In this document: positions 242 through 17,915 of the stretch, in pieces
How the letters are laid out: every line of letters begins with the position of its first letter
How positions within the stretch are numbered: the first letter of the stretch is position 1
From: Desulfobacterales bacterium
GTDB lineage: Bacteria; Desulfobacterota; Desulfobacteria; Desulfobacterales; JAHEIW01
NCBI GenBank assembly: GCA_030145015.1
Contig: JAQYWI010000045.1
Span: 1-33,476 of the forward strand
Direction of reading: 5' to 3'
Length of the DNA: 33,476 nt
Translations under genes and position numbers: made by a program
The notes under the pieces: model-generated
The model's database searches: none
What the model saw: the letters and a program-made list of their open reading frames with translations, nothing else
What the model was told of the DNA's origin: nothing

Positions 242-316
242 GCGGGAATAACTCAGTGGTAGAGTGCGACCTTGCCAAGGTCGAAGTCGCGGGTTCAAAT
301 CCCGTTTCCCGCTCCA
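242..316 (+). tRNA. tRNA-Gly(GCC)
   Basis: A full cloverleaf can be drawn. The acceptor stem pairs GCGGGAA with TTCCCGC (306-312). The D arm contains AGTGGTAGAG. The anticodon stem pairs CGACC with GGTCG around a TTGCCAA loop, with GCC at 274-276. The T arm contains GGTTCAAATCC. The discriminator is T313 and CCA is encoded at 314-316. It lies just downstream of pgsA and seven bases before a tRNA-Cys gene, so the two are probably one transcript. Confidence 0.97.
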
Positions 317-323
317 TTTTTTT

Positions 324-398
324 GGCGGCATAGCCAAGTGGTAAGGCAGCGGTCTGCAAAACCGCAATTCGTCAGTTCGACTCTGACTGCCGCCTCCA
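324..398 (+). tRNA. tRNA-Cys(GCA)
   Basis: The acceptor stem pairs GGCGGCA with TGCCGCC (388-394). The anticodon stem pairs GCGGT with ACCGC around a CTGCAAA loop, with GCA at 356-358. The T arm is CAGTTCGACTCTG. The discriminator is T395, the base expected for tRNA-Cys, and CCA is encoded at 396-398. The tRNA-Leu that follows in Escherichia coli is absent; a terminator comes next instead. Confidence 0.97.
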
Positions 399-5879: not shown

Positions 5880-7745
5880 ATGGATTTAAAGCACTTTGGT
5901 CAGGCTAAAGTCGTTAATGCGCCCGAGGCTATATCCAAAATTAAAAATGGCAGTCGTGTTTTCATCGGCACCGGATGCGGCGAACCCCAGCATTTGATCA
6001 AGGCCATGGTAGATGATTCAAATATCCAGGATATTTTGGTCTATCAGATGCTTTCGTCGACGCTTTCCCGGTTCATTGATGCTGAATCGTTTCGTCGCCG
6101 GTTTTCCCTCAAGCTTTTTTTTATCAGTCAGAGTATGCGCAAAGCCGCATTTGAAGGAAAAATTGATTATCTTCCGGCGTATTTGTCTCAAATTCCGCGG
6201 CTGTTTGCCAGTCAGCGTATCGGGCTTGATGTTGCCCTGGTCCAGGTCAGTCCGCCCGATAAATTCGGCTATTGCAGTTTAGGTGTCTCTGTGGATATCA
6301 CCCGGTCGGGATTGGAAAACGCCCATATGGTGATTGCCCAGGTGAATCCGCGGATGCCTCGAACCTGGGGCGACAGTTTCGTCCATCTTGAAGAAATCGA
6401 CTGGCTGGTCCCTTTCGAAGAGCCTCTGGTAGAGGAGGTGCCAACGGTAAAGGATAACGAAATTGCGCGCAGGATCGGCCTTTTTGTTTCCCAGCTTATC
6501 GATGACGGGGATACCCTTCAAATCGGTTTTGGTCATCTGCCTTATGCCATCTTGCCGTATTTGGATAACAAAAAGGATTTAGGTCTTCACACCCAGCTCA
6601 TAACCGACGGTCTGTTGCCTTTATTCGAGAAAAATGTCATCACCAACAAGAAAAAAACATTACTGCCGGGCAGAGCAGTTGCATCATTGTGTATGGGTTC
6701 GGAAAAGCTTTATGCCTATGTCGACAACAATCCCGCTTTCTATTTCCGTTCATCGGAATTCGTGAATGACCCTACCGTGATTGCGCGCAATGATCATCTG
6801 GTCTCCATCAGTTCGGCCCTGGAAGTGGATTTGACCGGTCAGATCTGTTCGGATTCCGTAGGCTACTTTTTTTACAGCGGGATCGGGGATCAGGTCGATT
6901 TTTTAAGGGGAAGTTCAATGTCCAAGGGCGGATTTTCGATCGTGGCGTTGCCTTCGACAGCCCAGAATGGCGCGGTCTCACGGATTGTGCCGCATTTAAG
7001 CGAGGGCGCAGGCGTGGCGACAACCCGCGGGGATGTGAATTTTGTCATTACTGAATACGGAATTGCCGAACTACAGGGAAAAGGGATTTTTCAGCGGGTC
7101 ATGGAATTGGCCCAAATTACCCATCCAAAATTCCGCGAAGCGTTAATCAGAGTGGCGAAAAAACGCCACTATATATTTGCCGACCAACTGCCGCCTTCCA
7201 CCGAAGATCTTCTTTTCCTGGAAAGTTACAAGAGCACATTAAAACTGAAAAACGGCAAAACAATGGAGTTCCGGCCACTGCTGCCATCCGATGAATTTGC
7301 CTATCGGAATTTCTTTTATTCTCTTCAGGAAAAAACGATCTATTTGCGCTTTTTCTATCGCATGCGGACCTTTTCTCATGAAGTGGTTCAAAAACACTGG
7401 GCCAGTGTCGATTACCATAAAAATATGTCGATAATCGGTCTTGTTCAGAAAGGCGGGCATAAAGAGATCAGCGCTATCGGGACCTATGCCTTTGATAATG
7501 AGAACAAGGCTGAAGTTGCCTTCGTGGTCCGTGAAGAATTCCAGGGAATGGGAATTGCCTCATATCTGCTCAGGGTCCTTGAAAAAATCGCGATAGAAAA
7601 CAATTATAAGCAATTTTCGGCAACAGTTTTACGCGAGAACAAGGCGATGATTCAAGTTTTTAAAAAGCGCTATCCAAATTCAAAGCTTTCCGTTCAAACC
7701 GGCGGCGAGATTTTAATCGAAATGGATTTAGATGGCGGGAGTTAA
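5880..7745 (+). CDS. Acetyl-CoA hydrolase/CoA-transferase fused to a GNAT acetyltransferase
   Basis: Residues ~1-440 form a family I CoA-transferase/acetyl-CoA hydrolase, with the S-G-I-G-D-Q-V-D-F-L-R-G oxyanion segment and the I-T-E-Y-G-I-A-E-L signature. Residues ~465-620 form a GNAT domain with the acetyl-CoA binding motif E-F-Q-G-M-G-I-A-S-Y-L-L. The first part would move CoA between acyl groups or hydrolyse acetyl-CoA; the second could acetylate a protein or small molecule. At the position of the catalytic glutamate (usually S-E-S-I/V-G) this protein has aspartate, D325, in C-S-D-S-V-G. From memory, aspartate is common in GNAT-fused relatives, so this may be clade-specific. It is probably monocistronic, with an inverted repeat just upstream. 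Confidence 0.9.
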   Translation: MDLKHFGQAKVVNAPEAISKIKNGSRVFIGTGCGEPQHLIKAMVDDSNIQDILVYQMLSSTLSRFIDAESFRRRFSLKLFFISQSMRKAAFEGKIDYLPAYLSQIPRLFASQRIGLDVALVQVSPPDKFGYCSLGVSVDITRSGLENAHMVIAQVNPRMPRTWGDSFVHLEEIDWLVPFEEPLVEEVPTVKDNEIARRIGLFVSQLIDDGDTLQIGFGHLPYAILPYLDNKKDLGLHTQLITDGLLPLFEKNVITNKKKTLLPGRAVASLCMGSEKLYAYVDNNPAFYFRSSEFVNDPTVIARNDHLVSISSALEVDLTGQICSDSVGYFFYSGIGDQVDFLRGSSMSKGGFSIVALPSTAQNGAVSRIVPHLSEGAGVATTRGDVNFVITEYGIAELQGKGIFQRVMELAQITHPKFREALIRVAKKRHYIFADQLPPSTEDLLFLESYKSTLKLKNGKTMEFRPLLPSDEFAYRNFFYSLQEKTIYLRFFYRMRTFSHEVVQKHWASVDYHKNMSIIGLVQKGGHKEISAIGTYAFDNENKAEVAFVVREEFQGMGIASYLLRVLEKIAIENNYKQFSATVLRENKAMIQVFKKRYPNSKLSVQTGGEILIEMDLDGGS

Positions 7746-8060: not shown

Positions 8061-8465
8061 GTGTCATACACGCTTGGTCAAAAACAGCTCGATAGAATAG
8101 AGGATATTTTAAATCAAGATCTCATCGACAATGGGGTGCGCTGTGTTTTTTTAATCGACATGGCTGGAAATATCATCTCCAATTTGGATAATGGAGAAAA
8201 ACAGCACGATATTTATTCTTTGGCGGCTTTGGCAGCCGGCAATTTCGGCGCCGTCAGCGCTATGGCCAAAATCATTGGCGAAAATGAGTTTTCATTGCTG
8301 TTTCACAAAGGCAAAAAAGAAAATATCCATTTTAACAAAATTACGACAGAATTTTTACTGATTACCATCTTCGGCAATGATATTTCTTTGGGCTTTTTAA
8401 GACTGAAGGTCTCCGATTCCGTTGAGCAGCTAAAAACCATTTTGGAACCCCTCCTGTCGCTTTAA
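8061..8465 (+). CDS. Roadblock/LC7-domain protein, MglB-like
   Basis: The 134-residue protein has the roadblock fold pattern: an N-terminal helix, the strand V-R-C-V-F-L-I-D-M-A-G-N-I-I-S, the helix S-L-A-A-L-A-A-G-N-F-G-A-V-S-A-M, and C-terminal strands L-L-I-T-I-F and L-G-F-L-R-L. MglB proteins of this fold are GTPase-activating partners of MglA, and an MglA-type GTPase follows 63 bases downstream. The start is GTG, chosen because GGAGGGG ends three bases before it and no other start is nearby. It is the first gene of the operon. It could also act as a GEF-like or scaffolding roadblock protein, since GAP activity cannot be read from sequence. Confidence 0.88.
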   Translation: MSYTLGQKQLDRIEDILNQDLIDNGVRCVFLIDMAGNIISNLDNGEKQHDIYSLAALAAGNFGAVSAMAKIIGENEFSLLFHKGKKENIHFNKITTEFLLITIFGNDISLGFLRLKVSDSVEQLKTILEPLLSL

Positions 8466-8528
8466 ACCTATTGGTCAATCTGCATTCTAGCTGAAGGCGT
8501 GTTGGTTGCTTTTCGCTTATATTTTCAT

Positions 8529-9134
8529 ATGGCATTTGTAAATCTAAAAAATAAGGAAATTCAGGTAAAAATCGTCTATTACGGTCCCGGACGGGGCGGT
8601 AAGACGACGAACCTGGAATATATATACAAAAAGTTCCGAAAACGCATCAATACTGAAATGGTCACCGTTAAAACCCATGGAGATCGGACGCTTTTCTTTG
8701 ATTTCTTGCCCTTTGATATTGGTGTCATCAATGGATATGATGTTAAAATTCAGCTTTACACCGTACCGGGCCAGGTTAAATATAATGCCACCCGGAGGTT
8801 GGTCCTCAGAGGCGTTGATGGTATCGTTTTTGTCGCCGATGCCATGGCTGTCCGTCGCGAAAAAAATATTTTGTCGCTAAAAAATCTGCAGGAAAATCTT
8901 GCTAATTATAAAAAGAGTATTTTCAAAATTCCATGTGTGATGCAATATAACAAAGTAGATCTTGTGGAACAGGGGATTCCGTTGCTGCCCGTTGAGATCC
9001 TTGAACAAGATCTCAACAACCAGTTAAAAAGGCCTTCTTTCAAAGCCAGCGCCTTGAACGGCACCAATGTGGTGATGACCTTGAAAAAAATTATATCAAT
9101 GACGGTAGCGTCAATAAAAAGGGATTTAAAATAG
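8529..9134 (+). CDS. MglA-type small Ras-like GTPase
   Basis: MglA GTPases set front-rear polarity and control type IV pili or gliding in Myxococcus and relatives. The 201-residue product has Walker A G-P-G-R-G-G-K-T-T (19-27), the MglA hallmark T-V-P-G-Q (78-82) in place of D-x-x-G, and N-K-V-D at 141-144. With the ATG at 8529 the intrinsic arginine finger falls at R53 and the catalytic glutamine at Q82, the same numbers as in Myxococcus xanthus MglA, which supports this start. An in-frame GTG at 8499 would add ten residues, but neither start has a strong ribosome binding site. It lies between its presumed MglB partner and a coiled-coil protein, and shares their transcript. Confidence 0.93.
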   Translation: MAFVNLKNKEIQVKIVYYGPGRGGKTTNLEYIYKKFRKRINTEMVTVKTHGDRTLFFDFLPFDIGVINGYDVKIQLYTVPGQVKYNATRRLVLRGVDGIVFVADAMAVRREKNILSLKNLQENLANYKKSIFKIPCVMQYNKVDLVEQGIPLLPVEILEQDLNNQLKRPSFKASALNGTNVVMTLKKIISMTVASIKRDLK

Positions 9135-9145
9135 GAGGGCATAAA

Positions 9146-9979
9146 TTGGTCGATACGAATAAAGACGACAAATTGGACCTTGAGATCGCAAAACGTCTTG
9201 ATGACCTTTTTGGAGAAGGTGATGCCTCCTCCGATAAAAACATGGTTTTAAAAGCAGACGACCCGACTGTAGATGAAAATAAATCTCCAGATAAACCCCC
9301 GGCAGTTGCAAATGATGAAATTGTTGAGTTAGAGGATACGGCTGCAAACGAGACGGACGCAGTACGCACTCCGGTTGACTATCCTCTATCCGAGTTGAAG
9401 AACATGGTTCTTTCAATCGATTGGGAAATTACGGACGAAGTCCTATCCGGTTTTCTTTCCCAGATAAATAATCTAAAAAATGTCTATAAAAATGAAAAGA
9501 TCATCTTGATGTTTCTTCAGCTTTTGGGCTCCTTGGGAGAATATATCAAAACCAATCGTGGGAATGCCCACCCAAAAACGTTTAAAATACTGAACTCGGT
9601 TTTCGCGCGCCTGGAAGATGTGGTTCTAACGGAAGATATGGCGGAGTTAGAAAAGAAAAAATTACTTAGAGCTGAAATGAATAAATATAAAGAACTCAGA
9701 AAACAGGTCGCACAGAAAAAAGCCACCGAAGTTAGTCGGAGGCAAGCCAAACCGATACAAAAGGATAAACTCCATCTCAGAGCGCCTGAGAAGAAGAAGA
9801 GCGTTATGCACGCTTCTAAAGCTCCTATGGCAGCTGGAGAAGAAAAGCCGTCCTCTGATTCAATCGCAGCTAAATCATACGACACCATGGCTGAAGCGGT
9901 TGAAGAACTTAAGCAATTTATCCATACCGAGTTAAGCGCTTTGAGGCAGGAATTAAAAATATTGAAAAAATCAAGGTAG
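9146..9979 (+). CDS. Uncharacterised helical protein in the MglA operon
   Basis: The family is not recognised. The start is TTG, with AGGAGGG six bases before it and only 11 bases after the mglA-like stop, so tight coupling is likely. Residues 1-80 are acidic and low in complexity. Residues 80-165 form a denser helical block (L-S-I-D-W-E-I-T-D-E-V-L through N-A-H-P-K-T-F-K-I-L-N-S-V-F). Residues 165-225 are lysine/arginine-rich, and the last 30 look like a coiled coil. A cytoplasmic adaptor or effector of the GTPase is a reasonable guess from position only. Confidence 0.85.
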   Translation: MVDTNKDDKLDLEIAKRLDDLFGEGDASSDKNMVLKADDPTVDENKSPDKPPAVANDEIVELEDTAANETDAVRTPVDYPLSELKNMVLSIDWEITDEVLSGFLSQINNLKNVYKNEKIILMFLQLLGSLGEYIKTNRGNAHPKTFKILNSVFARLEDVVLTEDMAELEKKKLLRAEMNKYKELRKQVAQKKATEVSRRQAKPIQKDKLHLRAPEKKKSVMHASKAPMAAGEEKPSSDSIAAKSYDTMAEAVEELKQFIHTELSALRQELKILKKSR

Positions 9980-10108
9980 CAATTCCCTCTCAACCCCTTT
10001 GTCATAGATGTTTAGAAACCAAAGATTGATTGGAATTCATTTTCAACCAAACCCAGACAACCCTTTATCTGCCACGTAGGCTGCAAACGGTACCGCTGAG
10101 GTAGCATT

Positions 10109-10588
10109 ATGGATTTTTCGTCGGGCGAAATTTCCTCTACGGTTTTCAAACGTATCGTTCGTGATGACATTGGCGAATACCCCCTGGATCATCAAATGCT
10201 TGCAGTTTTCATGGAATTAGACGGTAAGGCCCCCTTAGGTGTTGTGGCTCGAAAAGCCGGCCTTAATATGAGCACGATGCGTGAAATCATTGCCAAGCTG
10301 ATGCAAAATGGGCTGGTTGAAAAAGTGGGCCAAGAAACTGTCACGCTGGATAAAGACTTTTTCGACTATCTCGTTGCCCAGCTATCACTGGCCATCGGAC
10401 CTATTGCCGAAGTGCTGATTGAAGATGAAATTTATAAATTGGGCCATGAAATATCTCAGTTCCCCGGACATCGCGTGGCTGATTTAGTCCGCAATTTAGC
10501 CCGCGAGATCCGACGCAAGGAAAAAAAGGATGTTTTCCTCAAAATGATGGCTACTAAAATCCGGGATAAACGATACTTAAAGGGTTAA
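10109..10588 (+). CDS. Probable winged-helix protein in the MglA operon
   Basis: The 159-residue protein has an N-terminal helix-turn-helix-like segment (L-G-V-V-A-R-K-A-G-L-N-M-S-T-M-R-E-I-I-A-K-L) followed by a short wing (G-L-V-E-K-V-G). Its C-terminal helical domain begins A-I-G-P-I-A-E-V-L-I-E-D-E-I. That G-P-I-A motif recurs in C-terminal domains of bacterial signalling proteins, but I cannot assign a firm family. GAGGT lies six bases before the ATG. It could regulate the operon or serve as a protein-interaction module; DNA binding is not proven. Confidence 0.8.
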   Translation: MDFSSGEISSTVFKRIVRDDIGEYPLDHQMLAVFMELDGKAPLGVVARKAGLNMSTMREIIAKLMQNGLVEKVGQETVTLDKDFFDYLVAQLSLAIGPIAEVLIEDEIYKLGHEISQFPGHRVADLVRNLAREIRRKEKKDVFLKMMATKIRDKRYLKG

Positions 10589-10698
10589 TGTCTGTTTTTT
10601 TCTAAGCAGCCGGAGCGTTCAAACATCTTGAATCTATTCATCGTTCCCATCGTGAAGCCAGGTCGTTAAATTTAGAATTATTTTAGAGGAGTTCAGCT

Positions 10699-11856
10699 AT
10701 GATTGTCATCTGTGAGGAATGTGGGAAAAAATACCGGCTTGATGTTTCTAAAATTAAAGGCAGCGCTGCCCGCTTTAAATGCCGCGTATGCACACATATG
10801 ATCATGGTTTCAAAGCCGCAATCCGCGTCACCTGCGGCAGTGGCAGAGGATTTGCCCGCAAAAGAAACAGCCGCGGAAACCGCTGGGAAAAAGGCGTCGG
10901 CGGCAAAGCCGGACATAACCTTTGACCGATCCGCGACCGAAAGGAGTCAGGTACGGCCGGTTCGCAAGGTGGGCGCTTTCAATTTGCGAACCAAAATGGT
11001 TCTACTTTTTCTTTTTATTCCATTGGTCCTCATGATTGGTGCAAGCTTGCTATATTTATGGCAGCTCGAGCAAATGTCTGCGCTGCTTACCAAAGAAAGC
11101 ACTAAAATCGTCAACCAGATGGCAGAAGAGAAGATTGCAGATCTATCCACTGCAGTTGCCATTCAAAGCAGACTGTACCTGTTGGCTCATCCCGAACTAA
11201 AGAAAGAAGATTTTATGAATGATATGGGTTTTAAAACCCTGGCCATCCAGAAGGTCGGGCTAACCGGGTATACGGCCCTTTATGAAATGCCCGATCCGGA
11301 GAATGTTTGGCGCACCTGGGCGCATGTGAACCCCAAAATTATCAGTATTGATATGTCAACACTGAAAAAGCCGCTGGGACGGAATTTTCCGGGTTTTTGG
11401 AAGATATACACCGGGGTAAAGGGGGGCAAACGATCCCAAGGCTATTATACCTGGCAGGATAAGGACGGTAAGTTTCGCGATAAATTCATGGTGTGTACAC
11501 CCGTTGCCGGAACCCCATTTGTGGTTGCGGCTACAACCTATTTGGATGAATTCACCGGGCCGATTAAACTGATGGAAAGCCGGGCTGAAATTTTGACCCA
11601 AAAAACACGGCTGATGACATACGCCATTCTTGGTGGGACTCTTTTGTTAATCGGTATCATTGTTTCCATTTACGGCCATCGACTCACCAGCAAGATTAAA
11701 TCCTTAACAGATGTCGCCGAACGAATCAGCATTGGAGATCTTGAAATCGAAGTCGAAGCCCAATCCAGGGACGAAATCGGAGAATTGGCAGAAGCGATCT
11801 CGCGGATGCAAGAGAGTATTCGCCTGTCGATAGAACGATTGCGTCGACGCAGGTAA
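10699..11856 (+). CDS. Membrane sensor: MJ0042-type zinc ribbon, Cache domain and HAMP, no output domain
   Basis: Domain order over 385 residues: a cytoplasmic zinc ribbon with C5, C8, C28 and C31; a linker; a membrane helix at about 100-121; a periplasmic Cache-like domain (about 125-295, with G-L-T-G-Y-T-A-L-Y and the G-Y-Y-T-W motif); a second membrane helix at about 305-325; and a HAMP domain to the end. After the HAMP segment the protein stops, with no methyl-accepting, kinase or cyclase domain. It therefore has to signal through a partner, perhaps the PAS-HisKA protein three kilobases downstream, or through its N-terminal zinc ribbon. AGAGGAG precedes the ATG. Confidence 0.88.
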   Translation: MIVICEECGKKYRLDVSKIKGSAARFKCRVCTHMIMVSKPQSASPAAVAEDLPAKETAAETAGKKASAAKPDITFDRSATERSQVRPVRKVGAFNLRTKMVLLFLFIPLVLMIGASLLYLWQLEQMSALLTKESTKIVNQMAEEKIADLSTAVAIQSRLYLLAHPELKKEDFMNDMGFKTLAIQKVGLTGYTALYEMPDPENVWRTWAHVNPKIISIDMSTLKKPLGRNFPGFWKIYTGVKGGKRSQGYYTWQDKDGKFRDKFMVCTPVAGTPFVVAATTYLDEFTGPIKLMESRAEILTQKTRLMTYAILGGTLLLIGIIVSIYGHRLTSKIKSLTDVAERISIGDLEIEVEAQSRDEIGELAEAISRMQESIRLSIERLRRRR

Positions 11857-11886
11857 TCCGAAAAATTGTATCGATAAGGATTAAAA

Positions 11887-12870
11887 ATGGTTGTTATCCC
11901 GAGACAGCAGCCTGTGCTTGAAAACTTAAATATTTACTATTTAAACGTGAGAAAGTTACTTGAACATTTCCAGGGCGAAATCGGGGCCGGAGGCGTCTAT
12001 TTTAAATCTCATGCAGCCGAGGGTGTCATATTTTTCGATCAAAACGAACTTTTAAGCGGCTTTTTTAAGGATAGAGACATTGAAATTTCAGGTAATGAAG
12101 CAATTGAGCGTCTCTTGGAAGCTGGGGATGATTATAATTTCAGCGTTAATATTTATGAAATCGGTCCGGAGGAAGTTTATTACTGGGCCAGTATTCCAAC
12201 GGCGGAGCAAATTTACAAAGATCTCAGCACTGAATTTACGGACCTTGAGGGTCTTGTCAAGAAGATGGGTTCTGAAAAATTGACCGGCTTTATTGATGTC
12301 TCTATCGGTGATGGCAAGGAAATGGGCCTTATTTTTCTTATAAACGGCAAAATTAGGGGTGGTTCCTATTCCTGGGGTAACGGCTCGCCGAGTCCATCCA
12401 AAGAAAATCAGGATTTACTTATTCAAAAAAGCAAGGAATTCGGAGGCTCCTTTAATGTTTGTCGGATTCCTTTGACAAACTCGGAAACGGATAGTGAGCC
12501 CGATTTAGCAAAATCTAAGCATTTGGCAAATGCGATTGAGTTTCTTGAAGAATTGCTGCGGATATTTGAAAAAGTGGTCCGTTTAAAAAGAAAAAAGCGA
12601 ATCGATTTTCAAAAATTGTTGAAACAAAAATTAGTCGAACATGCAGAACAGTTCGCCTTTTTAGATCCGTTTGCCGGTGAATTTGAATACGTCGAGCATA
12701 AAATCACGTTTTCGGGGCAAACCAGTGATCAAAATTTGGTTGAAGGCGTTTTTGCGGTCGTAAAGGAAATGGCCCGGGAATTGGGTCTGCTACCGGCCCT
12801 GATTGAAAATTTGGATTCCTGGTCGGGTAAATATTCTGAAGAATTGGCAATTTACGATATAAGCTTTTGA
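11887..12870 (+). CDS. DUF4388-like protein in the MglA operon
   Basis: The 327-residue protein contains two segments resembling the DUF4388 pattern of a small beta-rich unit ending in a G-x-I strand: G-G-V-Y-F-K-S-H-A-A-E-G-V-I-F-F-D near residue 35, and L-T-G-F-I-D-V-S-I-G-D-G-K-E-M-G-L-I-F-L-I-N-G near residue 140. A helical region with a basic K-R-K-K-R patch follows, then a C-terminal domain of unknown type. It has no membrane segment. The DUF4388 assignment is by pattern and moderately sure; members are common in deltaproteobacterial two-component proteins and probably mediate protein contacts. Confidence 0.8.
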   Translation: MVVIPRQQPVLENLNIYYLNVRKLLEHFQGEIGAGGVYFKSHAAEGVIFFDQNELLSGFFKDRDIEISGNEAIERLLEAGDDYNFSVNIYEIGPEEVYYWASIPTAEQIYKDLSTEFTDLEGLVKKMGSEKLTGFIDVSIGDGKEMGLIFLINGKIRGGSYSWGNGSPSPSKENQDLLIQKSKEFGGSFNVCRIPLTNSETDSEPDLAKSKHLANAIEFLEELLRIFEKVVRLKRKKRIDFQKLLKQKLVEHAEQFAFLDPFAGEFEYVEHKITFSGQTSDQNLVEGVFAVVKEMARELGLLPALIENLDSWSGKYSEELAIYDISF

Positions 12871-12892
12871 TAATATTGGAGTAAAAAAAATT

Positions 12893-12986
12893 CGGAATTC
12901 GGAATGCGGAATGCGGAATGCGGATTTTGGATGCGCGGAACGCATAACATTTCAATCCGCAATCCAAATTCTAAAACCCAAAATCG
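12893..12986. repeat. Heptamer array (CGGAATG units) with partial inverted copy
   Basis: Four contiguous 7-bp units (CGGAATT, then three CGGAATG) and a fifth, degenerate one run from 12893 to about 12927. Part of the array is mirrored downstream: GCGGATT at 12920-12926 is the complement of AATCCGC at 12954-12960, followed by AATCCAAATTC and AAAACCCAAAATC. It fills the gap between two operon genes and may fold as RNA. Confidence 0.75.
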
Positions 12987-12998
12987 TGGTTAGGGTTC

Positions 12999-14060
12999 AT
13001 GGCTGGTGCAAATTTAATAATTACAGGTGATTATTCAGCTAGAAGGTATGCGGAATTTATTGACAGCCTTCCTGCCGCCCTCTTTCGTACCACCATTGAA
13101 GGCCAAATCATATATTGCAACCACGCCTTTGCAGATTTATTTGGTTTTGACTCAGCCCTGGATCTAATCGACTATCCTGTCATTGAGCTTTACCAAAATA
13201 AAAAAGATCGAGGCGGAATTATCCAAACGGTTATGCAAACCGGGCGTATCATAGATCTTCCTGTGGCCTTTAGGCAGAAAAATGGAACTCCAATCTGGTG
13301 CGCGTTAACTGCGAAAGCGGTTTTGGATGATGACGGTATTGTCGTTAATATGGATGGGATTTTAAAAGAAATAACGGGAGAAATCGATACAATCAACGAA
13401 TTTCCGAAAATAGGAAAACCGGCTGAAAGTTTAAACGATGGCATCATTATTTTCGACCTTCGCGGCGAAATGATCAACGTTAATCCGGCTGGAGAAAATC
13501 TGCTGGGTGCCCCCAAAGAGCAGTTAATGGGCAAATCACTATCTGAATTTTTAGCTCCCGGTGACCGTGATCTGTTTCTGATTTTCCTGGCCGATATTTA
13601 TAAAATTGGTCGCAGTGATGCCATTTTGTCCGTTCTGGATGGCAACTCAAATATACACTATCTTAAATGCCAGGCATTTCTTGTAAAAAACAACGGTCGG
13701 GTTCAGCATATTAAGTGTATCGCAAGAGATGTGACCCGTATTATTAGCAAGCAAAAGGAACAAGCAGGCAACGAAAAGTTTCAGGGCGTCCTGGAAATGG
13801 CCGGAGGGGTAGCTCACCGTCTCAATCAACCGTTGACGATTATTAATAATTTGATCAATGAAGTTTTGTCGGAATTACAGCAAAAAAACGAAACTTATCT
13901 AAAGATCGTCAAAGTTCATAATCAGATCAAGAAAATGAACGATATTACCGATAAATTAGGTAGGATAAAAAAGTATGAAGCTATGGATTATGTGGCCGGC
14001 ATTAAAATCGTTGACATCGAGAAAGCCTCCTGGTCCCATGATAAAGAGGAAGACCGATGA
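12999..14060 (+). CDS. PAS-PAS-HisKA protein lacking the kinase ATPase domain
   Basis: Residues ~15-135 and ~140-250 are PAS domains. A dimerisation/phosphoacceptor (HisKA) helix follows, with the H-box G-V-A-H-R-L-N-Q-P-L and H273 as the would-be phosphorylated histidine. The protein ends about 80 residues later, before any N, G1, F or G2 box, so it cannot bind ATP as a normal histidine kinase. The stop overlaps the start of the receiver gene (ATGA), which implies translational coupling. It may be phosphorylated in trans by another kinase, act as a phosphotransfer protein, or serve as a receiver phosphatase. The reading frame is intact and no kinase-domain remnant follows, so it is not obviously a frameshifted gene. 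Confidence 0.88.
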   Translation: MAGANLIITGDYSARRYAEFIDSLPAALFRTTIEGQIIYCNHAFADLFGFDSALDLIDYPVIELYQNKKDRGGIIQTVMQTGRIIDLPVAFRQKNGTPIWCALTAKAVLDDDGIVVNMDGILKEITGEIDTINEFPKIGKPAESLNDGIIIFDLRGEMINVNPAGENLLGAPKEQLMGKSLSEFLAPGDRDLFLIFLADIYKIGRSDAILSVLDGNSNIHYLKCQAFLVKNNGRVQHIKCIARDVTRIISKQKEQAGNEKFQGVLEMAGGVAHRLNQPLTIINNLINEVLSELQQKNETYLKIVKVHNQIKKMNDITDKLGRIKKYEAMDYVAGIKIVDIEKASWSHDKEEDR

Positions 14061-15067
14061 TAAAAAATGTTTTGCTGGTAGATGATGATACCGAAATGCT
14101 TCATGCCCTCAAGGAAGGGTTCAAGAAGTATCAGGAGTCTTTTGCAGTTGTCTTAGCCGAAGACGGTCTGCGGGCCTTGGAGAGCCTTAAGCGAAATCTC
14201 ATTTCTCTGGTTGTGACTGACTTGAAAATGCCCAATATGGACGGATTTGAGCTGCTGGCTCATATCATGGAACATTACCCGGACATTCCCGTGATCATCA
14301 TCACCGGCTATAGTACACCTGAAATGGAGCAGCTGGCGCGTGAGGGCGGTGCGGTCGGTTATATTGCCAAACCATTTCTGATTGAGAATCTTGCGCGTCA
14401 AATCCTGACCACCCTGAGAAGGGAATCAGAAGGCGGTACGCTCCATAATGTCTCTTCCGGTATGTTCCTGCAGTTAATCGAGATGGAGCAGAAAACTTGC
14501 ACCATTCGATTGGAGGACAAATCGAGCCATAAAAAAGGCATCCTGTTTTTTAATGAAGGCGAATTGTTTGATGCGCGGGTAAACAATATCCAAGGCCAAG
14601 CGGCGGCCCAAGAAATTTTTTCGTGGGATGCAGTGAATCTTTCCATTCAAAATGGTTGTGCTTTAAAGGACAATAAAATTCAGAGTGATTTACAACCTCT
14701 CATTCTTGAGGCCATGCGGCGAAAAGACGAGGATGAGGCGGAGAATGTGCCCGAAAGTGTTATGGAACAGATGGAGCATGGAGAAGAGGAGCCTGCCGAT
14801 CTACTAAAAAAACTTAAGGCCAGAATTGAAACCCAAATCGGTCAACAATGTGGTCTTGAAGATTTATATCAGGATGAATTTTGGGACAGTCGGGTGGCTC
14901 AGCTATCAAAGACCGGCGAATTTTTTCATTTTGGCAGATTCATGCTCGGATACATCGACAGGGGTGATACAAACGATTACATCCTAATTCCGGGCCAAAA
15001 GACCACTGTAATTACCGTTGATCCAAAGTGCCCGAGGGACAAAATCCTGCGTGTGATCAGCGAATGA
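14057..15067 (+). CDS. Response regulator with receiver and DUF4388 domains
   Basis: The receiver domain covers residues 1-120, with acidic D9-D11, phosphoacceptor D55, T83 and K105 all conserved. A DUF4388-type domain follows (about 130-215, with K-K-G-I-L-F-F-N-E-G-E-L-F-D-A-R). The last third contains an acidic linker and a C-terminal domain ending in a roadblock-like L-R-V-I-S-E. There is no DNA-binding output, so the target is probably a protein. It overlaps the PAS-HisKA gene by four bases, which makes the pair a likely phosphorelay. Confidence 0.92.
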   Translation: MIKNVLLVDDDTEMLHALKEGFKKYQESFAVVLAEDGLRALESLKRNLISLVVTDLKMPNMDGFELLAHIMEHYPDIPVIIITGYSTPEMEQLAREGGAVGYIAKPFLIENLARQILTTLRRESEGGTLHNVSSGMFLQLIEMEQKTCTIRLEDKSSHKKGILFFNEGELFDARVNNIQGQAAAQEIFSWDAVNLSIQNGCALKDNKIQSDLQPLILEAMRRKDEDEAENVPESVMEQMEHGEEEPADLLKKLKARIETQIGQQCGLEDLYQDEFWDSRVAQLSKTGEFFHFGRFMLGYIDRGDTNDYILIPGQKTTVITVDPKCPRDKILRVISE

Positions 15068-15100
15068 AATATCTGCGACTCGAATAAAACATCGATTTTA

Positions 15101-15463
15101 ATGACGAATATGCGCAAGTTGTTCAATGATATATTGAGTACCGAAGGTGTAAAGGGCATTTTGTTATTCTCTTTTTCAGGGGATCTTATTTTTAAAGAAT
15201 ATATCTCCCCCATTGATGAAAAACCTGAACACCGAGATTGGCGCTTTTTTATTGAATCTCTGGAAGGTATGCGGGAAACCGATTTGGTCTTTGAAAAGGG
15301 CAGAATCTACATCCGCAGAACGGAGATGGGGTATTTGGTCATATTAATGGCTCTTTTTGTGCCGATTGCGATGATCCGATTAAACTGCGATATTCTTCTG
15401 CCGTTGTTAAGACAACCAAAACCCGGCGGAAAGTTTGGGCGGTTTTTTAAAAAAAATAAATAA
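15101..15463 (+). CDS. Small roadblock/LC7-like protein
   Basis: The 120-residue product starts M-T-N-M-R-K-L-F-N-D-I-L and continues with the strand V-K-G-I-L-L-F-S-F-S-G-D-L-I-F. This resembles the opening of roadblock domains. A second strand pair (Y-L-V-I-L-M-A-L-F-V) and a helix follow, and the protein ends in a basic tail. If right, the operon encodes two roadblock proteins, this one and the one at 8061, perhaps forming a heterodimer. An internal ATG three codons later is an alternative start. The family call is moderate. Confidence 0.75.
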   Translation: MTNMRKLFNDILSTEGVKGILLFSFSGDLIFKEYISPIDEKPEHRDWRFFIESLEGMRETDLVFEKGRIYIRRTEMGYLVILMALFVPIAMIRLNCDILLPLLRQPKPGGKFGRFFKKNK

Positions 15464-15545
15464 AATATAAACGTGATAAGCGTAGTGGTGATTTTATACT
15501 GATCCTCCAATCACGGTATTTTAAATGAAAGGGTAAACAAAAGCA

Positions 15546-17915
15546 ATGAAGACAGATATCGAATCCAGTATCAATGAAGCCGAAGTTTGCCGCTCCATGG
15601 GATTATTTTCAGATTCGCTCAGCATTTACGAAAAAATACTCGGGAGTGTGTCACCCCAGGATACTCAAACCCACGATAAAATTGAGAAGCGGATCCGGTT
15701 GCTGAAACAAGAAATTGACAGTCATGAAGAAACCGCGCCAAAAGGTGTTTCGGCAAAAGAAATTACCATGCTCCGCAAGCGCTTATCAGACCAGGGAGAT
15801 GTTCCCGCGATTCTTGATAGTGCCTCGGCTTTTAAAGAGATGGGCCTGCACGGAGAGGCCATACCCGAATTTGTCAAACTGCTTAAAGAGGATTATCCCG
15901 TTGGCAAAGTCATTCCAGAGCTCTCCGAATGCCTGCTAAAATTGCATTCCCCGTCCAAAGCAACCGAAGAATTGAACGACCTGCTAAACAGTCAAAAACT
16001 CGAAAAAAAAGATGTCGCCCACATTAGATTTCTTTTTGGTCAGGAAATGGAGAAACGCGACCATCGCGAAGTCGCCCTTGATAATTACAAGGCAGCCCAC
16101 AAATTGAATCCGGGTGATGCGGAGATCAAAAAACGAATGGATTCGATTGCGGCCACATTTACCACCGGCTCCAAATACGATTATCTGCTGCGTGAGAAGA
16201 TGGTCACTACGGACCAATTGCAGCAGGCCTTTGCCCTGTCTAAAAAGATGAACAAAAGTGTCGAATTTGTTCTGATTGAACATAACAAAATCAGCAAAAA
16301 AGCCATCGCTAAATCCTTTTCCCTTTTTTATGATACGACGTTTCGTGAATTTGATCCGTCCTTTACGACTCCGGTCGAGTTGCTGTCCAATCTGAAAAAA
16401 GCATTTTTGCTGAACGAATACTGGGTTCCGATGAGCTGGGATAAAGAGGGTGTCGAGATCCTGGTTGACGACCCCCGGGATCTGAATAAGACCGATAATA
16501 TCAAAACCTTGATGAAAACCAGTCGGATCAATTTTACGGTGGCGATCCGTGAAGATATCGAGCAATATATTAGAAAATTTTTTGATGGCGGGCAGGGGAC
16601 ACAAGATACGCAAAGGATTGATCATGCTCTTGATGATTTTGATTTAATTCCGGATGTCTCTTTTGAAGAAGAGGAGGAGGATGAGGGTCCGGAAGACGAG
16701 GGTTTCGATGAGGCGTCCGGTCGGATCGTTAAGCTTGTGGACCAGGTCGTTATTGCGGCCTACCGCAAAAATTCATCGGATATACATATTGAACCCTCCT
16801 CGATTACGAAATCCACTACGATTCGCTTCCGCTTGGACGGTGTCTGCCAGGAATATATGAGAGTCCCAAATTCCATGGTGCGCGGCATTATCTCCAGAAT
16901 CAAGATTATGTCTAACCTGGATATTGCCGAACGGCGTTTGCCCCAGGACGGAAAGATTAAATTCAGACGCAAAGGTGTCCCGACATTTGAACTCCGGGTG
17001 GCCACCCTGCCAACTCAGGGCGGTTATGAAGATGTTGTCATGCGGATCCTAGCCTCTGCCGGCGCCATGCAAATCAATGAAATGGGACTCACCAATCGGA
17101 ACGCTGAGGTGATGAAGCGTATCATCGCAAAACCCTACGGTCTGATTCTGGCAGTGGGTCCCACCGGTTCCGGTAAGACCACATCCCTGCATGCCATCCT
17201 CAGCTATATCAACAAGCCGGGCATAAAGATATGGACCGCCGAAGATCCGATCGAAATCACTCAATCAGGTTTGCGGCAGGTGGAAGTGAAGCCGAAAATC
17301 GGCCTGGATTTTGCGCGTGTCATGCGCGCGTTTCTGAGGGCCGACCCGGATGTCATCATGATCGGTGAAATGCGGGATGAGGAGACCGCTTCCATCGGCA
17401 TTGAGGCCTCTTTGACGGGGCATCTGGTCTTTTCTACCCTGCACACCAATAGCGCGCCGGAAACCATTACGCGGCTGCTGGATATGGGTCTCAATCCGCT
17501 TAATTTTTCCGATGCTTTTCTGGGCGTGTTGGCCCAGCGGCTAACGCGGCGTGTTTGTAAAGACTGTATGGAAGAATATCCTCTGACAAAAGATGATTAT
17601 GAAATGATTTATGTAGATTACGGCGAAAAATTTTGGGGGCAGACCGGTATTGAATATGACCCGGATATGACCCTTTATCGGCCTGCCGGATGCGATTCCT
17701 GTTCCAATACCGGGTACCGCGGCCGCATGGGCATCCATGAACTCATGGAAGGTACACCCAAGATAAAATTGATGATTAAAAAGCAGGCCAATACGGAAAT
17801 GCTTTTTGCCCAGGCCATGAAAGAAGGCATGTCCACCTTGAGGCAGGATGGGATCATGAAGGTATTTAAGGGGCTTACCGATATGTCCGAAGTGCGGCGG
17901 GTATGTATTAATTAA
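15546..17915 (+). CDS. TPR-MshEN-PilB/GspE-type secretion ATPase
   Basis: This is a hexameric type IV pilus/type II secretion motor ATPase with an unusual front end. Residues 1-205 look like TPR helices (repeated K-E-M-G-L-H-G-E-A-I-P-E-F type units). About 212-350 is a MshEN/GspE N-terminal domain, and an acidic linker with five consecutive glutamates lies near 375-390. The motor domain has Walker A G-P-T-G-S-G-K-T-T (538-546), Walker B with E608, the histidine box G-H-L-V-F-S-T-L-H-T-N, and a zinc-binding tetracysteine C671/C674/C716/C719. It is last in the MglA operon, and no pilin, PilC or PilQ gene is nearby. MglA-family GTPases control PilB/PilT polarity in Myxococcus, so the motor is a plausible effector here. 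Confidence 0.93.
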   Translation: MKTDIESSINEAEVCRSMGLFSDSLSIYEKILGSVSPQDTQTHDKIEKRIRLLKQEIDSHEETAPKGVSAKEITMLRKRLSDQGDVPAILDSASAFKEMGLHGEAIPEFVKLLKEDYPVGKVIPELSECLLKLHSPSKATEELNDLLNSQKLEKKDVAHIRFLFGQEMEKRDHREVALDNYKAAHKLNPGDAEIKKRMDSIAATFTTGSKYDYLLREKMVTTDQLQQAFALSKKMNKSVEFVLIEHNKISKKAIAKSFSLFYDTTFREFDPSFTTPVELLSNLKKAFLLNEYWVPMSWDKEGVEILVDDPRDLNKTDNIKTLMKTSRINFTVAIREDIEQYIRKFFDGGQGTQDTQRIDHALDDFDLIPDVSFEEEEEDEGPEDEGFDEASGRIVKLVDQVVIAAYRKNSSDIHIEPSSITKSTTIRFRLDGVCQEYMRVPNSMVRGIISRIKIMSNLDIAERRLPQDGKIKFRRKGVPTFELRVATLPTQGGYEDVVMRILASAGAMQINEMGLTNRNAEVMKRIIAKPYGLILAVGPTGSGKTTSLHAILSYINKPGIKIWTAEDPIEITQSGLRQVEVKPKIGLDFARVMRAFLRADPDVIMIGEMRDEETASIGIEASLTGHLVFSTLHTNSAPETITRLLDMGLNPLNFSDAFLGVLAQRLTRRVCKDCMEEYPLTKDDYEMIYVDYGEKFWGQTGIEYDPDMTLYRPAGCDSCSNTGYRGRMGIHELMEGTPKIKLMIKKQANTEMLFAQAMKEGMSTLRQDGIMKVFKGLTDMSEVRRVCIN

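What the first reader, a model, noticed from the sequence alone, without database searches (positions are those of the whole stretch)
8061..17915. Ten-gene operon joining an MglA/MglB polarity switch to a TPR-fused PilB/GspE motor ATPase
Seen: ten co-directional genes with an MglB-like roadblock protein, an MglA GTPase with R53 and Q82 conserved, a sensor without output domain, a PAS-HisKA protein without ATPase domain, a receiver-DUF4388 protein, a second roadblock-like protein and a GspE/PilB-type ATPase with TPR front end. Known: MglA controls PilB/PilT location in Myxococcus. Inferred: the operon is a complete signal-to-motor circuit, sensing through the membrane and relaying to the GTPase and ATPase, in an organism where the other pilus genes lie elsewhere or do not exist. 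I know of no described system with this content.
Basis: partly seen in the sequence, partly recalled or inferred. Interest (0 to 1): 0.78.

Follow-up and report, generated by a model that had tools for sequence, protein, structure and literature searches.

The report
Polarity-GTPase operon carrying a pilus motor
In bacteria of the Desulfobacterales group, a molecular compass switch (MglA/MglB) sits in one conserved gene cluster with a pilus-building motor that has a protein-docking front end fused to it, which suggests the switch may steer the motor directly instead of through a separate adaptor as in Myxococcus.

Summary
The ten genes at 8061-17915 are real and the block is not unique to this genome. 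All ten stand in the same order before rsmG in 6 of 13 relatives found; the other 7 are contig fragments, damaged or rearranged. Shorter versions exist, down to MglA plus the ATPase. Among rows listed from 147 genomes of the class, 38 of 54 TPR-type ATPase genes lie within 15 kb of a listed MglA, against 0 of 94 GAF-type relatives and 0 of 35 canonical PilB. The ATPase is TPR(1-206)-MshEN(207-349)-T2SSE. It is not a PilB equivalog: 498 bits, cut-off 676. It groups with Thermus PilF, and its wider clade nearly excludes canonical PilB, suggesting replacement. Type IV pilus genes lie elsewhere in relatives. Best reading: MglA-GTP licenses type IV pilus extension through the TPR front end of its own motor, a fused counterpart of the Myxococcus MglA-SgmX-PilB pathway. 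The interaction is inferred. 'Complete circuit' is too strong: the block lacks a kinase ATPase domain. New variant of a known kind.

The parts
8061..8465 (+). g01: MglB-like roadblock protein, probable GAP for g02
   Evidence: Robl_LC7; phmmer to PDB chains named MglB 1.4e-20
8529..9134 (+). g02: MglA Ras-like GTPase with R53, T78, Q82 (start set to the ATG that aligns with known MglA; the ORF itself opens at GTG 8499)
   Evidence: phmmer to PDB chains named MglA 6.5e-53 and 4e-51
9146..9979 (+). g03: soluble orphan protein, acidic N-terminus then a conserved segment
   Evidence: no Pfam family over cut-off; 747 homologues, the 120 listed named 'hypothetical protein' or not at all except one labelled CobT; travels with MglA
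10109..10588 (+). g04: winged-helix-like protein
   Evidence: HTH_IclR 2e-5
10699..11856 (+). g05: membrane sensor: N-terminal zinc ribbon, TM about 100, Cache-like periplasmic part, TM about 306, HAMP, no output domain
   Evidence: Zn_ribbon_4 and HAMP over cut-off, Cache weak; hydropathy windows
11887..12870 (+). g06: strongly conserved orphan protein; a weak DUF4388-like pattern
   Evidence: 754 homologues; DUF4388 only at E 0.05 and 0.08 in two of three relatives scanned
12999..14060 (+). g07: PAS-PAS-HisKA with conserved H-box histidine and no HATPase domain
14057..15067 (+). g08: receiver-DUF4388 protein with conserved phospho-acceptor Asp; overlaps g07 by 4 bp
15101..15463 (+). g09: second roadblock-fold protein
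   Evidence: AlphaFold model and Foldseek
15546..17915 (+). g10: TPR-MshEN-T2SSE motor ATPase of the PilF-like clade

Best explanation
The operon encodes a polarity switch wired to its own pilus motor. MglB (g01), helped by a second roadblock protein (g09), is expected to set the GTP/GDP state of MglA (g02). A membrane sensor (g05) and a PAS-HisKA/receiver-DUF4388 pair (g07/g08) feed environmental signals into that switch. MglA-GTP then binds the TPR front end of the ATPase g10 and places or activates it at the base of the type IVa pilus machine, whose other genes (PilM-N-O-P, PilC, PilT/PilU) are encoded elsewhere in relatives, so that pili extend only where MglA-GTP is. In effect the two Myxococcus parts, the TPR adaptor SgmX and the extension ATPase PilB, are one polypeptide here. 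Shown: gene content, domain order, conserved linkage, modelled roadblock fold of g09, near-exclusion of canonical PilB by g10's wider clade, pilus genes elsewhere in relatives. Inferred: every protein contact, polar localisation, direction of signal flow, and that g10 works on the type IVa pilus.
For: Block conserved in the same order in 6 of 13 relatives. Of 43 class genomes with g06, 35 have MglA and 28 have g10 within 15 kb on the same strand, 26 have both. TPR-type ATPase near a listed MglA: 38 of 54 genes, against 0 of 94 GAF-type and 0 of 35 canonical PilB; counting only genes in genomes with a listed MglA, 38 of 52, 0 of 74 and 0 of 18. In 10 further genomes with a strong g10 match, 6 have an MglA, one copy each, and all 6 copies are on the contig of the TPR-ATPase within 9 kb; in two, MglA is the gene immediately upstream. 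Canonical PilB over cut-off and the TPR/GAF clade share 5 of 147 genomes (Fisher p 1e-17); no genome has both TPR type and canonical PilB in the transcribed rows. In G001 the only strong T2SSE proteins are GspE, PilT, PilU (named by reading the loci), g10 and one TPR paralogue, while PilM, PilO, PilP and a T2SSF protein next to a PilS-like kinase are present by Pfam. In G254 the TPR-ATPase lies about 5 kb from a pilin-like gene (N-methylation motif) and a kinase/sigma-54 regulator pair. In M. xanthus MglA-GTP binds the TPR protein SgmX, which is needed for polar PilB, and MglA showed no two-hybrid contact with PilB (PMC7519303, passages).
Against: No interaction was tested. TPRs bind many partners, and g10-type genes exist without MglA: 4 of 10 genomes, one of them (L084) in a chemosensory cluster by Pfam, one (L077) with neither an MglA nor a recognised receiver beside it. 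Some blocks have MglA but no g10 beside them (L013, L071, L072). g10 scores below the PilB equivalog cut-off. 24 of the 38 genomes with the linked pair also carry a GAF-type relative, and relatives carry further T2SSE proteins, so g10 need not be the only extension ATPase. Counts treat related genomes as independent. The T4aP argument rests on relatives, since the window's genome is not held.
Confidence: 0.58

Rival explanations
1. The genes share one pathway, but MglA does not act on g10. MglA works through another effector (for example the zinc ribbon of g05) and g10 responds to the receiver-DUF4388 branch; the TPR binds a receiver protein or the pilus base.
For: TPR-type ATPase genes with no MglA beside them are followed by a receiver-like protein in L014, L082, L084, L086 and L087 (Pfam for L084 only, the rest by local profile or reading), and L084 also has CheA, CheW and MCP genes by Pfam. 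NCBIfam gives a weak GltJ match to g05 residues 3-67 (E 0.028); GltJ is an MglA effector in gliding (PMC12288465, passages); that its zinc ribbon binds MglA is recalled.
Against: MglA plus the TPR-ATPase can stand with no receiver between them (L057, L083, L085), although L083 and L085 have receiver-DUF4388 proteins upstream of MglA. L077 has the ATPase without a recognised receiver.
Confidence: 0.25
2. g10 powers something other than a type IVa pilus, such as a type II secretion or MSHA-like system, under MglA control.
For: Relatives carry several T2SSE/T2SSF systems; g10 fails the PilB equivalog cut-off.
Against: In G001 the type II secretion locus has its own GspE, and the MSHA-like locus of G006 its own ATPase, both read from ORFs and placed apart from g10 in the tree. 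g10's wider clade nearly excludes canonical PilB, and 139 of 147 genomes have PilO at 1e-20.
Confidence: 0.1
3. The cluster is only inherited together by descent and has no common function.
For: Most cases are from related genomes, so counts are not independent; flanking AcCoA-transferase-like and rsmG genes are also syntenic in close relatives.
Against: Linkage survives reordering and loss (L013 for MglA with other block genes; L057, L058, L060, L061, L065-L067, L079 for MglA with the ATPase), while the GAF-type ATPase was not near a listed MglA in any of 94 rows.
Confidence: 0.07

Closest known systems
Myxococcus xanthus MglA/MglB - SgmX (TPR) - PilB pathway
   Same: MglA and MglB, a second roadblock-type protein (MglC, a paralogue of MglB, is part of the Myxococcus module; listing, passages), TPR domains and a PilB-type ATPase
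   Different: SgmX and PilB are separate proteins there and a direct SgmX-PilB contact has not been detected (PMC11580455, passages); SgmX has 14 TPRs (same passages), while here 11 modelled helices, about five TPRs, are fused to the ATPase and encoded in the MglA operon
Thermus thermophilus PilF with MglA/MglB
   Same: g10 branches with PilF in the tree; Thermus also has MglB and MglA (names; organism of the MglA chain recalled)
   Different: the PilF match to g10 begins only at about residue 214-222, leaving the TPR part uncovered; that PilF has GSPII domains and no TPR front end is partly recalled
Actinobacterial conservons (CvnA-D)
   Same: operon of sensor, MglB-type roadblock, small protein and MglA-type GTPase (PMC13343842, passages)
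   Different: no motor ATPase among the four core proteins; CvnA is a histidine-kinase-like protein; no family match of g04 to a CvnC-type protein was seen
Canonical PilB (TIGR02538)
   Same: MshEN-T2SSE architecture, invariant tetracysteine in the 19 g10-type sequences aligned
   Different: below equivalog cut-off, separate clade, TPR N-terminus

Membership tests
MglA GTPase | P-loop, R53, T78, Q82 and similarity over the whole protein | tested here: met
MglB | roadblock domain similar to known MglB | tested here: met
   the Thermus-type equivalog NF052242 is below its cut-off (64.6 of 200 bits)
MglB | GAP activity on MglA | not testable with these tools
   needs biochemistry
Roadblock/LC7 (g09) | roadblock fold | tested here: met
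   model, Foldseek; no Pfam match, profile match to MglB not significant
PilB equivalog TIGR02538 (g10) | score over curated cut-off | tested here: not met
   497.7 of 675.65 bits
MshEN-T2SSE assembly ATPase (g10) | MshEN and T2SSE domains, Walker A, zinc tetracysteine | tested here: met
c-di-GMP-binding MshEN (g10) | c-di-GMP motif NF053729 over cut-off | tested here: not met
   23.4 of 38 bits; binding itself not tested
SgmX-like TPR effector | TPR domain that binds MglA-GTP | tested here: inconclusive
   TPR fold supported, binding not tested
Actinobacterial conservon | sensor with histidine kinase domain | tested here: not met
   no HATPase_c match in any of the ten proteins at E up to 1
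Two-component phosphorelay (g07/g08) | conserved His and Asp acceptors | tested here: met
   His in 10 of 10 g07 sequences, Asp motif in 11 of 12 g08 sequences, the miss (L013) being a pattern that did not match; no kinase catalytic domain in the block

The most novel reading that the evidence does not exclude
A Ras-family GTPase directly gates a motor ATPase: MglA-GTP binds the TPR domain fused to a PilF-like pilus motor, collapsing the Myxococcus adaptor pathway into one protein. In this lineage a TPR/GAF-fused ATPase family has replaced canonical PilB, and the N-terminal fusion decides the controller: TPR for MglA or chemosensory receivers, GAF for a ligand.
Probability: 0.42. Interest if true: 0.8.

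Novelty: new variant of a known kind. Interest (0 to 1): 0.66.

Why it matters
How MglA and its TPR adaptor bring PilB to the pilus base is open in Myxococcus: the passages read here say that direct SgmX-PilB contact was not detected (PMC11580455). A natural TPR-ATPase fusion in an MglA operon, reducible to two adjacent genes, offers a small purifiable system to answer it. It also suggests that a whole pilus-ATPase family in these bacteria stands in for PilB.

Tried and rejected

Rows and limits. One search scored up to 7 candidates per genome and its list was cut at 150 rows; I transcribed 54 TPR-type and 94 GAF-type rows (107 of its 109 genomes) and dropped two fragment rows (G103:C282, G081:C5). 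'GAF-type' is my label for rows that match only from about residue 200 on at 46-53% identity; a GAF domain was shown by Pfam in one such protein (L074) and the N-termini of the rest were not scanned. Four rows were counted as TPR-type by identity (61-69%) although the match starts at residue 194-208 (G096:C172, G115:C333, G097:C77, G144:C5), so their TPR part is not shown; without them the count is 36 of 50 by my subtraction. One row (G110:C59) is cut by a contig end. The MglA list was cut too; 150 rows from 104 of 112 genomes were used, so weaker MglA genes near GAF-type or canonical ATPases could have been missed. One search scored up to 8 candidates per genome; one genome (G124) has a TIGR02538 match of 675.1 bits, just under the cut-off of 675.65, together with a GAF-type row, and was counted as lacking canonical PilB. 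One search scored up to 2 candidates per genome. L062 and L063 are GC-rich and their ORF picking is unreliable. L003 and L004 hold masked stretches; in G003 the block is split over three places, which I could not tell from an assembly fault. In L004, L006 and L013 g07 is short or missing; L069, L070 and L076 lack g07, and L072 lacks g05. In L013, L071 and L072 no g10 was found beside the block. The names PilN, PilT, PilU, GspE and the other type II secretion genes, and MshE, come from reading ORFs in the listings, not from a family scan.
Full report
Observation. The ten ORFs are as described. Domain scans give roadblock, Ras-like GTPase, winged helix, zinc ribbon-HAMP, PAS-PAS-HisKA (HisKA below cut-off), receiver-DUF4388 and MshEN-T2SSE. 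MglA aligns with solved MglA proteins, with R53, T78 and Q82 in place, and g01 with solved MglB. g09 has no family match but a roadblock model. g10 is TPR, MshEN, ATPase.

Conservation. A scan of genome contigs with the g06 profile (two peptide patterns, so close relatives only) gave 13 loci. In L001, L002, L005, L007, L008 and L012 all ten genes stand in the same order before rsmG. Of the other seven, L006, L009, L010 and L011 are contig fragments in the same order as far as they go (L006 lacks g07), L003 and L004 are damaged or masked, and L013 has a different order without g07 and g10.

Linkage with a control. In 147 genomes drawn from the class, g06 was found in 43, the g10 query at E 1e-130 in 109, MglA at 1e-40 in 112, PilO at 1e-20 in 139 and canonical PilB over cut-off in 35. 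Of the 43 with g06, 35 have MglA and 28 have g10 within 15 kb on the same strand, 26 both. In the rows listed, TPR-type ATPases near an MglA: 38 of 54; GAF-type 0 of 94; canonical PilB 0 of 35. Restricted to genomes with a listed MglA the figures are 38 of 52, 0 of 74 and 0 of 18. A phylum draw of 395 genomes gave 18 with a strong g10 match. Eight of these were in the class sample; of the ten others, 6 have an MglA, one copy each, and all 6 copies are on the contig of the TPR-ATPase within 9 kb; 4 have none. These genomes are related, and the ten may belong to the same class, so the counts are not independent.

Modularity. Versions seen: MglA-ATPase (L057); MglA directly before the ATPase, with a MinD/ParA-type ATPase and a receiver-DUF4388 protein upstream (L083, L085; Pfam for L083 only); MglA-RecDUF4388-ATPase (L058); MglB-MglA-g03-ATPase (L060); MglA-g05-g08-g09-ATPase on a contig end (L064); with a hybrid kinase (L065 by Pfam; L066 and L067 look alike by order and length); without g04, g05, g06 and g09 (L061); and full or nearly full sets (L068; L069, L070 and L076 without g07). 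Blocks without g10 beside them also occur (L071, L072).

What the ATPase is. In the tree g10, its TPR paralogue, the GAF-type and Thermus PilF form one clade (support 1.00) apart from M. xanthus and Geobacter PilB, GspE and MshE-like proteins (FastTree, 41 sequences, only three references). That TPR/GAF clade and canonical PilB share 5 of 147 genomes (107 with the clade, 35 with canonical PilB, 10 with neither; Fisher p 1e-17, uncorrected for kinship), and the TPR type shares none. In G001 the only strong T2SSE proteins are GspE in a type II locus, PilT, PilU, g10 and the TPR paralogue, while PilM, PilO, PilP and a PilC-type T2SSF gene are present elsewhere. PilQ was not seen, because the contig ends there. 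Hence the inference that this clade builds type IVa pili.

Mechanism. In M. xanthus MglA-GTP binds the TPR protein SgmX, which is needed for polar PilB; MglA showed no two-hybrid contact with PilB (PMC7519303, passages), and SgmX-PilB contact has not been detected (PMC11580455, passages). The fused TPR-ATPase beside MglA is therefore read as the same logic in one chain. The input side is less certain: g07 keeps its histidine in 10 of 10 sequences compared and g08 its aspartate motif in 11 of 12, but no kinase domain is encoded in the window block.

Known work. A survey of prokaryotic Ras-like GTPases reports variable neighbourhoods for MglA groups 1, 4 and 5 and conserved ones for groups 2 and 3; PilB appears once, for SofG (PMC4316618, passages; its supplementary tables were not seen). 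Conservons are the nearest operon-level analogue (PMC13343842, passages). I found no description of this block in the searches named under Tried and rejected.

Verdict. Observation confirmed; the system claim is strengthened; the 'complete circuit' and 'pilus genes absent' parts are weakened; direct MglA-motor contact is the best reading but untested.

Noticed in passing
L014 8006-11227 (also L017-L020): A second TPR-MshEN-T2SSE paralogue of about 800 aa, followed by a receiver-like protein in L014 and L020, in relatives that also carry g10 (in L020's genome only as a fragment); no MglA beside it.
   Followed up: partly
L084 3009-9289; L086, L087: TPR-type ATPase in a cluster with CheA, CheW and MCP genes (Pfam for L084 only), suggesting chemosensory control in place of MglA.
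   Followed up: partly
L074 7166-9469 minus: GAF-MshEN-T2SSE ATPase, the sister type, common in the class and not near a listed MglA in the rows examined.
   Followed up: partly
L044 7966-10346; L046 7879-10079: Second MglA next to a DUF4388 protein (with cyclic-nucleotide-binding domains by Pfam in L044) and a small PilZ-looking protein, conserved between two genomes.
   Followed up: no
L083 8266-9426; L085: MinD/ParA-type ATPase directly upstream of MglA and the TPR-ATPase, a further polarity-type protein.
   Followed up: partly
L065 2774-5194: Rec-PAS-HisKA-HATPase-Rec hybrid kinase between g03 and the TPR-ATPase, possibly supplying the kinase missing from the window block.
   Followed up: partly
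window 5880-7745: Acetyl-CoA hydrolase/transferase fused to a GNAT domain, syntenic upstream of the block in relatives.
   Followed up: no
window 242-395: Two tandem tRNA genes.
   Followed up: no
L003, L050, L052 (one genome): The block appears split over three chromosomal places in one masked metagenome-assembled genome; real rearrangement or assembly fault not resolved.
   Followed up: no
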